Assembly: GCA_019747815.1 (NCBI GenBank)
Contig: JAIEQJ010000073.1
Coordinates: 1 to 64,000 of the forward strand
Source: Hyphomonadaceae bacterium
Lineage (GTDB): Bacteria > Pseudomonadota > Alphaproteobacteria > Rhizobiales > Hyphomicrobiaceae
Direction of reading: 5' to 3'
Length of the DNA: 64,000 nt
Part shown: in pieces, positions 34,653-39,127 of the stretch
Position numbering within the stretch: position 1 is the first letter of the stretch
Layout of the letters: each line of letters opens with the position of its first letter
Position numbers and translations under genes: made by a program
The notes under the pieces: model-generated
Database searches by the model: none
What the model was told of the DNA's origin: nothing
What the model saw: only the letters and a program-made list of their open reading frames with translations

Positions 34653-35768
34653 CTAGGTCTTGGCTTCGGCAATGACGCAAATGAGATTGGCGCCGGGGGG
34701 ACCCTGGTGCTCCGCGCCGGCAGACGCCAGGAACATCGTATCGCCGACAATGGAGGCGACGACGGCGTGCGCCACGGCCTTGGCCTGGATGCCGCTGAAA
34801 GGGGCCAGGAAGTCCGAGTGCAGGACATGCCGCCGGCCGCGCACGTTGGTGACATAGTCGGCGCCGGCATTGACAAGCACGCCGGCGATGCGCTTGCGGT
34901 CTGTCTCTGCAACCATGCCGTCCCGCAATTCGAGCCCCGCCTGGCTGAAGGCCTTGCGAGCGCCGCCGGCGTCCAACTGGTCCGTCATGACGCCGTGCGA
35001 TGCCATCAGGTGACCGGGGGCGCCCTCGACATTGCCGATCACAAGAACCCGGCAGGCCACTTGCTCGCCGCCGGCCGAGGTCGATGCAACCGAGGAATAG
35101 AGCGACTTTTCGACATTGATCACGCCGTCCTTGAGCTTGCCCCGCTCCACCTCTCCCGTCGCCACCGCAACGCCCAGGGCGCACGCGCCCTTCGCCAGCG
35201 AGGATGCGACCGCCGGATTGGTGTTGACGACCTTCTGATTGCGCTTCTCGGCGTCGGCGATGCGCGCAGGCGTCATCGCGGGGCATTTCACCTCGACGCA
35301 TTCGACTTGCGAGGGGTGGGTGATGCCGGCATCGCGCATGGCCTGCCGCACGGTCTCGGCAACGAGATCGACCTGGACCATCGTGCCGTACTCTTCCGGC
35401 TTCAGCTCGCGGGAGCTCGCAACGCCAAGCGCCAGGCGCTTGCCCTGTGCCGGTGCGCCGCCCGGCTGCTTGATGAACAGGTAGATGTGCGGCGACATGA
35501 TGCCGCCTACGCCGCCGATCATCATCATCGGGATCTTAGCGAACACCTCCTGGCGAGAGAGCCCCAGCCGTTCCGACAGCAGGACTTCCATGGCCAGGGT
35601 GGCATAGCCGCGGGCGTAAGGATCGCCCTCCGTCTGCGCCATGATGGCCACGACATGTGCCGGATCCACGGCCTTGCGATCGAACAGTGCTGCAACCTGC
35701 GATACGTCGCCGGGCGAGCTCATCGGCACGCAAAACACCTTGGCTTCCAGTTTCTGCTTATCGGACAT
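34653..35768 (-). CDS. ring-opening amidohydrolase (cyanuric acid amidohydrolase/barbiturase family)
   Basis: MSDKQKLEAKVFCVPMSSPGDVSQVAALFDRK...SSVASTSAGGEQVACRVLVIGN...GRRHVLHSDFLAPFSGIQAKAVAHAVVASIVGDTMFLASAGAEHQGPPGANLICVIA; triplicated-domain family. Substrate (barbiturate vs cyanurate vs other) not assignable by eye. Start ATG 35768. Confidence 0.9.
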   Translation of the reverse strand: MSDKQKLEAKVFCVPMSSPGDVSQVAALFDRKAVDPAHVVAIMAQTEGDPYARGYATLAMEVLLSERLGLSRQEVFAKIPMMMIGGVGGIMSPHIYLFIKQPGGAPAQGKRLALGVASSRELKPEEYGTMVQVDLVAETVRQAMRDAGITHPSQVECVEVKCPAMTPARIADAEKRNQKVVNTNPAVASSLAKGACALGVAVATGEVERGKLKDGVINVEKSLYSSVASTSAGGEQVACRVLVIGNVEGAPGHLMASHGVMTDQLDAGGARKAFSQAGLELRDGMVAETDRKRIAGVLVNAGADYVTNVRGRRHVLHSDFLAPFSGIQAKAVAHAVVASIVGDTMFLASAGAEHQGPPGANLICVIAEAKT

Positions 35769-35920
35769 GGGCTCCCTCCTGGCGTCATGGCACGGCATGC
35801 GCCGCCGCTGGCTTGGCCGGCTATTTTCCACATGGCACGCACCCGAGCGCGCCTGAGAGGGTGCGCGCGGCGCCTGGCCGGTCGCGATTGATAAACTTAC
35901 GATAATGCGACATGTCAAGA

Positions 35921-36070
35921 TATTTCGAAATTTTGAGATAGCGCGTACGGTGCGGCGCGTGTGCCGCGCGCGCGACGGGTCATGGCGGCCGGTCATCGGC
36001 GCCAGGGCCGGATACGGCCGCCGCGCGCACCGGGCGGAGTTTTGTATATTTCTCATAATTTCGAAAATCA
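35921..36070. promoter_or_regulatory. AT-rich divergent promoter region with two TTTCGAAA-type palindromic sites
   Basis: TATTTCGAAATTTTGA (35921-35936) and ATAATTTCGAAAATCA (36055-36070) between divergent ring-opening amidohydrolase and sORF-DUF1116-FdrA transcription units. Confidence 0.4.
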
Positions 36071-36353: not shown

Positions 36354-37619
36354 ATGGCGCCGGCTGCTTCCCTGGTTGACAAAATTGCCGCCGCCAATCA
36401 GGAGGCGCACCGGCGCGTCCTGGCTGGCGATCCCGTGCTCGTCGATGTGCTTCTGGCCCGTGAAGCGATGCCCGGCCTGCCCGACCGCACTGTGCTGCAT
36501 GCTGGCCCGCCCATCACATGGGATCGGATGTGCGGGCCGATGCGCGGCGCCGTCGCCGGCGCCGTCGTGTTCGAGGGCTGGGCCTCGAACCTGGAGGTTG
36601 CGACCCGCCTGGCGGCAAGCGGCGAGATCAAGTTCGAGCCTAACCATCACTACGACGCCGTCGGCCCGATGACCGGCATGACCACGCGCAACATGGCCGT
36701 GCTCGTGGTCGAGAACCGCACCTTCGGCAACCGATCGTTCTGCACGGTCAACGAGGGCATGGGGAATGTCATGCGCTTCGGCGGCAACGATCAGGAGGTG
36801 GTCGACCGCTTGCGGTGGATGGCCTCGGTGGCGGGGCCGGCACTTGGCGCGGCGATCCGCAATCGCAAGGGCGTGCCTCTCAGGAACGTCATCGCCCGCG
36901 GGCTTTCCATGGGTGACGAGATGCACATGCGCAATGCGGCCTGCTCCAGCCTGATGGTGCGCGAGCTGGCCGCGGATCTGGCCGAGACGGCTGAACGGGA
37001 CCTCGGCCGCATCCTCCGCTTCATATCCGGCAATGACATGTTCTTTCTCAACATCGTCATGGCGATGGCGAAATCGGTCATCGCGCCCGCGCACGGCATC
37101 CCATACTCAACGGTCGTCACCACCATGGCGCGCAACGGCACTGATTTCGGGATTCGCCTCAGCTCCACCGGCGACGCCTGGTTCACGGGGCCGGCGCAGA
37201 TGGCGCGTGGGCTGTTGTTCGCCGGCTTTACCGAGGCGGATGGCAATCCCGATATCGGCGATTCCTGCATCACCGAAACGATTGGCCTCGGCGGCTTTGC
37301 CATGGCGGCGTCGCCGGCGGTCGTTGGATTTGTCGGCGCCGGAACGCTCGCGGACGCCATCGGCTATTCCAGGCGCATGACCGAGATCACCATCGGCCCG
37401 AACCCGGAATGGACCCTGCCTACGCTCAACATGATGGGGGTGCCGACCGGCATCGACATCCGCAAGGTGCTCGCGACCGGCATCCTGCCCGTCATCAACA
37501 CTGCCATCACCAACAAGTTGCCGGGCCGCGGCCAAATCGGAGCCGGCATCGTGCATCCGCCCCTGGTCTGCTTCGAGCAGGCGCTGTTGCAATTCGCCGA
37601 CGTGCATGGAGTCCATTGA
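36354..37619 (+). CDS. DUF1116 protein (YlbE/AllG/YahG family; oxamate transcarbamylase subunit-like)
   Basis: LHAGPPITWDRMCGPMRGAVAGAVVFEGWA; VENRTFGNRSFCTVNEGMGNVMRFGGND; GDSCITETIGLGGFAMAASPAVVGFVGAG; GQIGAGIVHPPLVCFEQAL. Confidence 0.92.
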   Translation: MAPAASLVDKIAAANQEAHRRVLAGDPVLVDVLLAREAMPGLPDRTVLHAGPPITWDRMCGPMRGAVAGAVVFEGWASNLEVATRLAASGEIKFEPNHHYDAVGPMTGMTTRNMAVLVVENRTFGNRSFCTVNEGMGNVMRFGGNDQEVVDRLRWMASVAGPALGAAIRNRKGVPLRNVIARGLSMGDEMHMRNAACSSLMVRELAADLAETAERDLGRILRFISGNDMFFLNIVMAMAKSVIAPAHGIPYSTVVTTMARNGTDFGIRLSSTGDAWFTGPAQMARGLLFAGFTEADGNPDIGDSCITETIGLGGFAMAASPAVVGFVGAGTLADAIGYSRRMTEITIGPNPEWTLPTLNMMGVPTGIDIRKVLATGILPVINTAITNKLPGRGQIGAGIVHPPLVCFEQALLQFADVHGVH

Positions 37620-37621
37620 TC

Positions 37622-39127
37622 ATGTCCGCGCTCATCAACCAGGTTCGCCGCGCGTTCTATATGGACTCGGTCGCGCTGATGCGCATCTCCCGTTCGGTCG
37701 GCGCCCTGCCTGGGGTTGCGACCGCCGCGCTCATGATCGGCTCGGCGACCAACAAGAAGCTGATGCAGGACGCCGGGCTGTTGAGTGACGAGGGGGCTGC
37801 CGCCGGCGCCAACGATCTCATTCTTGCCGTACGCGCGGACGATCCGGGGACTGCAGCGGCTGCCCTTGATGAGGCACGCAAGCTGCTCGACAAGCCGGCG
37901 ACGTCCGACCGGAACGGCGAGGAGTGGCATCCCAAATCACTCGACACCGCCCTGCGGCAACTGCCTGGCGCCAATGTCGCGCTCATCTCCGTGCCGGGAG
38001 AATTCGCCGCCGCAGAAGCGCGCCGAGCTTTGCACAGGCAGTTGCACGTCATGATGTTCAGCGACAACGTCTCGATTGCCGAAGAGGTGGCATTGAAGCA
38101 GGAGGCCAAGCAGCGCGGTCTGCTGATGATGGGTCCGGACTGCGGCACCGCCATTCTCGGCGGCACGCCGCTCGCCTTTGCCAACGTGGTTCCGCGCGGC
38201 GAGATCGGCATCATTGCGGCCTCCGGCACCGGCCTGCAGGAGGTTTCGTGCCTGATTGCGCGCAACGGCAAGGGCGTCTCGCACGCCATCGGCGTCGGCG
38301 GCCGCGACTTGAAGGCGGAGGTCGGCGGCATCATGACCCTGATGGCCATCGATGCGCTCGAGGCCGACGCCAGCACGGCGCAAATCGTTCTCATCTCCAA
38401 GCCGCCGGAGCCGTCGGTGGCGAAGCTGGTTCTGGACCGCGTGGCCGGCTGCGGGAAGCCCTTCTCGATCTGCTTCATCGGCGCCGACGACATGCACGTG
38501 CCGGCGAACGCCGGCTTGTCAGCCGATCTGCGCTCGACGGCGGAGCGCGCCCTGGCCGGCCGGCGCATTGCGTCGAGCGGCGCGCCGGCCTCGGCTGCCG
38601 AGCTGGCGAGCCGCGCGGGGCCGGGCCGCACCAAGGTGTGCGGGCTGTTTTCCGGCGGGACCATGTGCGCGGAGGCGCAGGTGTTCTTCCGCCGCGCCGG
38701 CATGGTCGTGGCGTCGAACGCGCCGATCCCGGGTGTCGGCAAGCCGGCGGCCGCGCCAGACGCGCACGTGCTGCTTGACCTGGGCGATGACGCCTACACG
38801 GTGGGACGCCCGCATCCGATGATCGATCCGACGCTGCGCAACGACATGCTGGGCGGAGCCCTCACCGACGGTAGAACAGCCGTCATCCTGCTCGACGTGG
38901 TGATCGGCTACGGGGCCCACGACGATCCTGCAGGAGAACTGATCGCACATCTGCCCCCGGCCAAGGCGCGCCAAGCGATCCTGATCGCATCGGTGTGCGG
39001 CACGCAGGAGGATCCGCAAAGCTATTCGAGGCAGGTGCAGGTGCTGCAGGAGGGAGGCGTCGTCGTGGCCCCGTCCAATGCGCACGCCGCCGAGCTGGCC
39101 ATCGAGGTGGCGCGCCGGCTTGCATGA
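37622..39127 (+). CDS. fdrA: FdrA family protein (AllF-like; acyl-CoA-synthetase/succinyl-CoA-ligase-like fold)
   Basis: MSALINQVRRAFYMDSVALMRISRSVGALPGV...MMGPDCGTAILGGTPLAFANVVPRGEIGIIAASGTGLQEVSCLIARNGKGVSHAIGVGGRDL; CGLFSGGTMCAEAQ. Start ATG 37622. Confidence 0.91.
   Translation: MSALINQVRRAFYMDSVALMRISRSVGALPGVATAALMIGSATNKKLMQDAGLLSDEGAAAGANDLILAVRADDPGTAAAALDEARKLLDKPATSDRNGEEWHPKSLDTALRQLPGANVALISVPGEFAAAEARRALHRQLHVMMFSDNVSIAEEVALKQEAKQRGLLMMGPDCGTAILGGTPLAFANVVPRGEIGIIAASGTGLQEVSCLIARNGKGVSHAIGVGGRDLKAEVGGIMTLMAIDALEADASTAQIVLISKPPEPSVAKLVLDRVAGCGKPFSICFIGADDMHVPANAGLSADLRSTAERALAGRRIASSGAPASAAELASRAGPGRTKVCGLFSGGTMCAEAQVFFRRAGMVVASNAPIPGVGKPAAAPDAHVLLDLGDDAYTVGRPHPMIDPTLRNDMLGGALTDGRTAVILLDVVIGYGAHDDPAGELIAHLPPAKARQAILIASVCGTQEDPQSYSRQVQVLQEGGVVVAPSNAHAAELAIEVARRLA

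What the first reader, a model, noticed from the sequence alone, without database searches (positions are those of the whole stretch)
34653..39127. Ring-opening amidohydrolase divergent from an FdrA/DUF1116 transcarbamylase-like module: candidate phosphorolytic N-heterocycle catabolic pathway
Seen: a barbiturase/cyanuric-acid-hydrolase family gene (34653-35768, -) shares a divergent promoter region with sORF-DUF1116-FdrA (36182-39127, +), and a DUF2877 gene occurs in the same window. Established: in E. coli FdrA/YlbE/YlbF (now AllF/AllG/AllH) are assigned as oxamate transcarbamylase, splitting oxalurate (HOOC-CO-NH-CO-NH2) with phosphate to oxamate plus carbamoyl phosphate. Barbiturase opens barbiturate to ureidomalonate (HOOC-CH2-CO-NH-CO-NH2), which is oxalurate with one extra CH2. 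Inference: the module may phosphorolyse ureidomalonate (or a biuret-type product of cyanurate ring opening) to an amide plus carbamoyl phosphate, conserving energy where classical pathways use hydrolytic ureidomalonase or biuret hydrolase. I see no carbamate kinase or ureidomalonase in the window.
Basis: partly seen in the sequence, partly recalled or inferred. Interest (0 to 1): 0.85.

Follow-up and report, generated by a model that had tools for sequence, protein, structure and literature searches.

The report
Ring-opening amidohydrolase paired with transcarbamylase
In two bacterial phyla an uncharacterised kind of ring-opening enzyme is inherited and apparently co-regulated with a specialised transcarbamylase, which suggests that these bacteria open a nitrogen ring and recover energy from the fragment as carbamoyl phosphate; the ring itself is not yet known.

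Summary
The genes are real and at the stated coordinates. The amidohydrolase (34653-35768, -) is neither a cyanuric-acid hydrolase nor a barbiturase. It belongs to a separate clade (100/99) that has lost two of the family's three Ser-Lys dyads (Gln45, Ile84, Asn300) and keeps only the catalytic one. The "sORF" is the detached C-terminal domain of FdrA. AllH at the window edge belongs to a second, complete operon whose carbamate kinase starts just outside the window. Of 42 related loci, 17 carry AllG near this amidohydrolase, in Pseudomonadota and Bacillota. The 16 linked genomes searched whole all have AllG and 15 have FdrA; 15 unlinked ones have neither, and mostly carry GatA-type amidases or isochorismatases instead. 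All 17 linked AllGs share an altered signature (Asn/Asp138, Met192, Ala384) found in no other AllG typed here. A palindrome (AATTTCGAAATT) lies between the two arms here and, in Rhodoplanes, also at the second AllG, an OxlT-type carrier and a permease. A phosphorolytic ring-opening pathway is thus well supported by context. The proposed substrates, barbiturate and cyanurate, are disfavoured; context points to an oxalurate/oxamate/oxalate end. No activity was tested.

The parts
34653..35768 (-). Ring-opening amidohydrolase (AtzD/barbiturase fold), 'QIN' subfamily
   Evidence: PF09663 372.8 bits; CAH equivalog NF052395 316.7 bits, below cut-off 360; active-site table; clade 100/99
34205..34627 (-). 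HbpS/GlcG-like protein directly downstream of the amidohydrolase
   Evidence: PF03928 109 bits; also found in L048, L049, L050, L051
33579..34145 (-). LOG/TIGR00730 family protein (nucleoside-5'-monophosphate phosphoribohydrolase-like)
   Evidence: PF03641 126 bits, TIGR00730 164 bits; also next to AtzD in L048 and L051; start approximate
35769..36181 (.). Divergent promoter region with two inverted operator-like palindromes at 35921-35932 and 36057-36068 (AATTTCGAAATT type)
36182..36352 (+). Detached C-terminal domain of FdrA (the 'sORF')
   Evidence: NF004760 positions 504-554, E 5e-10; alignment with the E. coli FdrA C-terminus
36354..37619 (+). AllG (DUF1116) paralogue of the AtzD-linked type, Asn138/Met192/Ala384
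   Evidence: PF06545 292 bits; tree; residue types
37622..39127 (+). FdrA/AllF core lacking its C-terminal domain
   Evidence: NF004760 489 bits, positions 6-495; PF00549 and PF02629
39343..40095 (+). GntR/FCD regulator, candidate binder of the palindrome
   Evidence: PF07729 and PF00392; relatives in L036/L049, L051 and G415 clusters
32161..33492 (+). Oxalate/formate-antiporter-like MFS carrier
   Evidence: TIGR04259 557 bits over cut-off 335; relative in the Rhodoplanes cluster L051
29181..30410 (-). Cytosine-deaminase-like amidohydrolase (PRK05985 group)
   Evidence: same family directly next to AtzD in the Bacillota loci
30446..31873 (-). TctC-type solute-binding protein (open frame; the gene is shorter than the frame)
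   Evidence: PF03401 188 bits
63166..64000 (-). AllH, last gene of the second CTD-AllG-FdrA-carbamate kinase-AllH operon (continues past the window; kinase at contig 64153-65124, FdrA match 65129-66601, AllG match 66976-67620)
   Evidence: PF11392 80.5 bits

Best explanation
This is one catabolic pathway split over two operons. A nitrogen heterocycle, probably deaminated first by the cytosine-deaminase-like amidohydrolase, is opened by a third, uncharacterised subfamily of the AtzD/barbiturase fold that uses only Ser231-Lys161-Glu235. The opened product keeps a terminal carbamoyl (ureido) group. FdrA plus its detached C-terminal domain plus the specialised AllG splits that group off with phosphate as carbamoyl phosphate. 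A second, E. coli-type AllG with AllH does the same to oxalurate or a close analogue. Carbamate kinase turns carbamoyl phosphate into ATP. The remaining amide (oxamate-like) is hydrolysed by a GGT- or formamidase-type amidase and the acid leaves by an OxlT-type carrier. Shown by sequence: genes, subfamily, split FdrA, conserved linkage, paired AllG types, shared palindrome. Inferred: every reaction, the order of steps, and the identity of the ring.
For: Linkage: AllG near this amidohydrolase in 17 of 42 loci, in Pseudomonadota and Bacillota. Whole genomes: AllG in 16 of 16 linked and 0 of 15 unlinked; FdrA over cut-off in 15 of 16 and 0 of 15. The amidohydrolase clade is supported 100/99 and holds two separate linked clades, 100/98 and 100/100. 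Linked AllGs: 17 of 17 are [N/D]138-M192-A281-A384, while 14 AllH/CK-side paralogues, 36 class-wide survey loci chosen without regard to AtzD, and E. coli AllG are not. Nine genomes have one FdrA but two AllGs. Palindrome with at most 1 mismatch: 2 sites in 64 kb here (null 0.01), both between the divergent genes; 4 in the 21-kb Rhodoplanes locus (null 0.0), near AtzD/AllG, LctP, OxlT and the second AllG-AllH; 3 in the Burkholderiales cluster. Most unlinked relatives carry GatA amidases and/or isochorismatases near the amidohydrolase. Carbamate kinase in the second operon. E. coli AllFGH interconverts oxalurate and oxamate plus carbamoyl phosphate (PMC11326118).
Against: No activity of any QIN enzyme or of this AllG type is known. 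The window's first module has no AllH, which E. coli needs, so it must be shared or dispensable. The palindrome is absent from the 18.7 kb around the second operon in this genome (at most 2 mismatches) and before OxlT in the window there is only a weak version read by eye. The linkage is clade-based, so independent events are few (two). AtzD-linked AllGs of the two phyla do not group together in the tree (one clade not rejected, p 0.08). The residue signature was chosen on part of the same sequences and then tested on the class-wide loci.
Confidence: 0.62

Rival explanations
1. Parabanate route: the QIN amidohydrolase opens parabanate (a five-membered ring) directly to oxalurate; the two AllGs together form one, heteromeric oxamate transcarbamylase.
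For: Oxalurate is the known AllFGH substrate. Oxamate transcarbamylase was reported to be induced by parabanic acid in a Streptococcus (title of a 1965 paper cited in PMC3364942). Oxalate/formate-type carrier and GGT nearby. One FdrA to two AllGs in nine genomes. No AllB or AllD over cut-off in the genome to make oxalurate from allantoin.
Against: Known members of the fold act on six-membered rings. It does not explain why the linked AllG has a changed signature while the other keeps the E. coli one. In this genome and in G209 each AllG has its own FdrA count of two.
Confidence: 0.16
2. One reading: barbiturate is opened to ureidomalonate, which FdrA/AllG phosphorolyse to malonamate plus carbamoyl phosphate.
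For: Fold shared with barbiturase; pyrimidine-type neighbours (cytosine-deaminase-like enzymes, PucR and NMT1-type genes); formamidase-like genes that could cleave malonamate.
Against: The barbiturase-type proteins aligned here keep all three dyads with Asn195/Val345, the QIN clade does not (compared with PMC3758960). A Group V protein of Peat et al. showed no barbiturate or cyanurate hydrolysis; that group contains Bacillus species of genera close to QIN hosts, an inferred link only. The oxalate/formate-type carrier and E. coli-type AllG fit oxalate better.
Confidence: 0.1
3. Cyanurate route: carboxybiuret/biuret is phosphorolysed to urea plus carbamoyl phosphate.
For: One CAH-type gene (G146, L037) also lies near FdrA-AllG; allFGHK lies beside biuret/triuret genes in nitrifiers (PMC12625717).
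Against: For the QIN enzyme two dyads are lost; in a true CAH, mutating any of the three serines or lysines costs about 10^4-fold or more (PMC4051656). In L037 the AllG is of a different type (K138, N192).
Confidence: 0.05
4. Neighbourhood without a shared pathway: AllG/FdrA use oxalurate made elsewhere and the amidohydrolase does something unrelated.
For: No assay exists; gene clusters for nitrogen scavenging often hold several pathways.
Against: Exclusive residue type of linked AllG, presence/absence pattern, shared palindrome, same pairing in two phyla.
Confidence: 0.07

Closest known systems
Oxamic transcarbamylase AllFGH with carbamate kinase AllK of E. coli (PMC11326118)
   Same: Homologous FdrA and AllG (and AllH, carbamate kinase in the second operon); expected phosphate/carbamoyl-phosphate chemistry
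   Different: FdrA is split, its C-terminal domain being a separate upstream gene; a second AllG paralogue with changed conserved residues; beside a ring-opening amidohydrolase instead of allantoin enzymes
Cyanuric acid hydrolase AtzD/TrzD (solved relatives 6bum, 6dhj, 5t13, 4bvq, 4nq3)
   Same: Same family by sequence; keeps the Ser226/Lys156/Glu230 set (Azorhizobium numbering)
   Different: Lys40 to Gln, Ser79 to Ile, Lys285 to Asn, Arg188 to Lys; below the CAH equivalog cut-off
Barbiturase (solved relative 5hwe)
   Same: Same family; less symmetric active site
   Different: Barbiturase signature Asn195/Val345 absent; barbiturase-type proteins aligned here keep all three dyads
Phosphorolytic ureido cleavage by YgeW in reductive urate degradation of E. 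coli (PMC12507026)
   Same: Same energy logic: a ureido group split with phosphate to carbamoyl phosphate, where another species uses a hydrolase
   Different: YgeW belongs to the classical transcarbamylase family, to which AllFGH shows no similarity; another ring and ring-opening enzyme

Membership tests
AtzD/TrzD/barbiturase ring-opening amidohydrolases (PF09663) | Profile match over full length | tested here: met
   372.8 bits, cut-off 25, profile 2-357 of 358
AtzD/TrzD/barbiturase ring-opening amidohydrolases (PF09663) | Family-wide Ser-Lys-Glu set (Ser226/Lys156/Glu230) | tested here: met
   Ser231, Lys161, Glu235
Cyanuric acid hydrolase | Three Ser-Lys dyads and Arg195 | tested here: not met
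   Gln45, Ile84, Asn300, Lys193
Cyanuric acid hydrolase | NCBIfam equivalog cut-off | tested here: not met
   316.7 against 360 bits
Barbiturase | Asn195/Val345 signature | tested here: not met
   Lys and Ala
Oxamic transcarbamylase AllFGH | AllF, AllG and AllH together | tested here: inconclusive
   First module has AllF (split) and AllG but no AllH; complete set in the second operon 27 kb away
Oxamic transcarbamylase AllFGH | E. coli-type residues in AllG (Lys133, Gln188, Gly382) | tested here: not met
   Asn138, Met192, Ala384 in the window AllG; met by the second-operon AllG
Oxamic transcarbamylase AllFGH | Carbamoyl phosphate formation from oxalurate | not testable with these tools
   No assay possible

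The most novel reading that the evidence does not exclude
FdrA/AllH form a common core that takes interchangeable AllG subunits, so that two transcarbamylases act in sequence on one ring-opened chain (for instance a biuret-type oxalyl chain to oxalurate, then to oxamate), yielding two carbamoyl phosphates per ring: a stepwise phosphorolytic dismantling of an N-heterocycle started by a new subfamily of the AtzD fold.
Probability: 0.27. Interest if true: 0.86.

Novelty: new variant of a known kind. Interest (0 to 1): 0.72.

Why it matters
Known ring-opening routes for cyanurate and barbiturate end in hydrolysis and waste the energy of the ureido bond. A route that recovers it as carbamoyl phosphate would be a new energy-conserving mode of N-heterocycle catabolism. 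It would also give an uncharacterised third branch of the AtzD fold a role, suggest that AllG is the acceptor-choosing subunit of a poorly understood transcarbamylase, and correct automatic names: several relatives are labelled cyanuric acid amidohydrolase although the clade lacks two of its three catalytic dyads. Rhodoplanes serenus DSM 18633, a named culture-collection strain, carries the whole set, so it can be tested.

Tried and rejected
Xanthine ring-opening (clostridial xanthinase) was considered because of PucR regulators and deaminase neighbours, but a separate xanthinase gene cluster is already reported (PMC12507026); set aside without a direct sequence comparison. An allantoin source for oxalurate by the E. 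coli route was tested: no AllB or AllD over cut-off in this genome (a PuuE-like gene beside the second operon scores 117 against 424.6). The first 16-nt form of the operator found nothing near the second operon; the 12-nt palindrome worked better across genera. One clade for all AtzD-linked AllGs is neither supported by the tree nor rejected. Rfam showed only two tRNAs. No consensus sigma-70 promoter was found between the divergent genes. The 2012 family survey (PMC3415516) was not held. No structure prediction was run, since coordinates would not have been available for checking pocket positions.
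Full report
What is there. The reported genes exist at the reported places. On the minus strand an AtzD/barbiturase-family gene (34653-35768) is followed by an HbpS-like gene (34205-34627) and a LOG-family gene (33579-about 34145). 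On the plus strand, divergently, lie a 56-codon gene (36182-36352), AllG (36354-37619), FdrA (37622-39127) and a GntR regulator (39343-40095). The 56-codon gene matches positions 504-554 of the FdrA model, while the FdrA gene matches only 6-495 of 555; it is therefore the detached C-terminal domain of FdrA. The second operon has such a gene upstream of its AllG too, and in a relative (L002) the domain is fused to the front of AllG, which itself suggests contact between FdrA and AllG.

The second operon. The window is part of a 78,678-base contig. Just past its edge lie carbamate kinase (64153-65124), FdrA (match 65129-66601) and another AllG (match 66976-67620), with AllH at 63166-64146. So this genome holds a complete AllFGH-carbamate kinase set 27 kb from the first module. 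A gamma-glutamyltranspeptidase-family gene, which could be an oxamate amidohydrolase by analogy with HpxW (own knowledge, not tested), is beside it. AllB and AllD of the E. coli allantoin route are not found over cut-off, so the source of oxalurate is open.

The amidohydrolase is a third kind. Known members have three Ser-Lys dyads in a threefold-symmetric site; only Ser226/Lys156 (with Glu230) is family-wide (PMC4051656). The window protein keeps that set (Ser231, Lys161, Glu235) but has Gln, Ile and Asn where cyanuric acid hydrolase has Lys40, Ser79 and Lys285. All aligned members of its clade share this, and none of the other family members aligned here does. The clade is supported at 100/99. 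Single mutations at these positions in a true CAH cost about 10^4- to 10^9-fold in activity, so cyanurate is an unlikely substrate. The barbiturase signature is absent as well. Group V of Peat et al., which contains Bacillus species of genera close to those found here, included one protein tested without activity on either substrate (PMC3758960).

Linkage. A scan of 85,488 species genomes with a profile of this clade gave 42 loci; 17 hold AllG in the stretch fetched, most of them immediately beside the amidohydrolase: four from Pseudomonadota, the others from Bacillota, an Izimaplasma bin or unnamed bins. The match used peptide patterns, so it is a sample and not a census. Whole-genome searches of 31 of these hosts found AllG in 16 of 16 linked and 0 of 15 unlinked ones, and FdrA over cut-off in 15 of 16 against 0 of 15. 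In a class-wide survey of 395 genomes, 22 had a PF09663 gene, and it shared a neighbourhood with AllG in three: the window genome, G209 (same arrangement, same subfamily; the same assembly as L049 by its contig length) and G146 (a CAH-type protein). On the amidohydrolase tree there are two linked clades, one per phylum (100/98 and 100/100), each beside an unlinked clade of its own phylum.

Partner replacement. The unlinked lineages (Bacilli, Roseomonas and relatives) mostly carry GatA-type amidases, isochorismatases, or both near the amidohydrolase. Such families hydrolyse biuret- and ureido-type products in known pathways. This is what one would expect if phosphorolysis and hydrolysis are alternative ways of handling the same kind of ring-opened product.

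A specialised AllG. In linked genomes the AllG at the amidohydrolase and the AllG at AllH/carbamate kinase are different paralogues. All 17 linked AllGs read [N/D]138, M192, A281, A384 (window numbering). The 14 paralogues on the AllH/kinase side read K or R, Q and G at 138, 192 and 384, as E. coli AllG does (K, Q, G). Of 36 class-wide AllG loci fetched without regard to AtzD, none has the linked signature. The signature was picked on the first set and then tested on the class-wide set. These positions sit inside the most conserved motifs, so a change of acceptor is a reasonable reading; it has not been mapped on a structure. Nine genomes have two AllGs but a single FdrA, which points to a shared core with two AllG subunits, or to a mixed complex.

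Regulation. The 413-base divergent region holds a 16-base inverted repeat. Its core, AATTTCGAAATT, occurs with at most one mismatch only there in the 64-kb window (2 sites, null 0.01). In the Rhodoplanes cluster it occurs four times (null 0.0): between AtzD and AllG-FdrA, before the LctP-type permease, at the OxlT-type carrier and at the second AllG-AllH. In the Burkholderiales cluster it lies before AtzD and before CTD-AllG-FdrA. Relatives of the window's GntR protein are in these clusters. It is not found near this genome's second operon.

Mechanism. The best-supported reading is: deamination, ring opening by the QIN enzyme, phosphorolytic removal of the carbamoyl group by FdrA with the specialised AllG, a second such step or oxalurate cleavage by the E. 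coli-type AllG with AllH, ATP from carbamate kinase, and disposal of an oxamate-like amide through an amidase and an oxalate/formate-type carrier. Only the gene content, residue patterns and linkage are shown; the chemistry and order are inferred from E. coli AllFGH (PMC11326118) and from the neighbours. [quoted passage not shown] the paper itself was not read).

Novelty. Searches of the held library found no paper that joins this amidohydrolase family with FdrA/AllG; subscription papers are largely missing from it. The nearest is the report of allFGHK beside biuret/triuret genes in nitrifiers, which found no atzD (PMC12625717). The energy logic has a precedent in YgeW of the reductive urate pathway (PMC12507026). 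I file it as a new variant of a known kind.

Noticed in passing
43439-45250 (+): A carbamoyltransferase of the Carbam_trans (PF02543/PF16861) family, which by family uses carbamoyl phosphate, lies about 4 kb beyond the module; no sign that it belongs to the pathway.
   Followed up: no
L037 (G146 contig 268, 861-6150): A CAH-type AtzD gene, with all three dyads, also stands divergent from an FdrA-AllG pair; its AllG has K138 and N192, a third type.
   Followed up: partly
L098-L102, L045: A third AllG type (K138, N192, A281, G384) with FdrA and carbamate kinase, often with AllH and an isochorismatase-family gene beside it; its substrate may differ again.
   Followed up: partly
L111-L133: Many AllG-family genes stand without a detectable FdrA nearby and vary at the conserved positions; probably other functions.
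   Followed up: no
L001 8298-9221 (contig 68298-69221): A PuuE-like polysaccharide-deacetylase-family gene divergent from the second operon, 117 bits to the PuuE allantoinase model against a cut-off of 424.6.
   Followed up: partly
41738-42292 (+): Helix-turn-helix/IS481-type transposase fragment (PF13565, PF13011, partial rve), close to a tRNA gene at 42828-42899.
   Followed up: no
L070 12524-13858, L063, L069, L087: Unlinked QIN loci of Roseomonas and relatives carry an NtaA/DmoA-family flavin monooxygenase near the amidase, which hints at an oxidative entry into the same ring chemistry.
   Followed up: no
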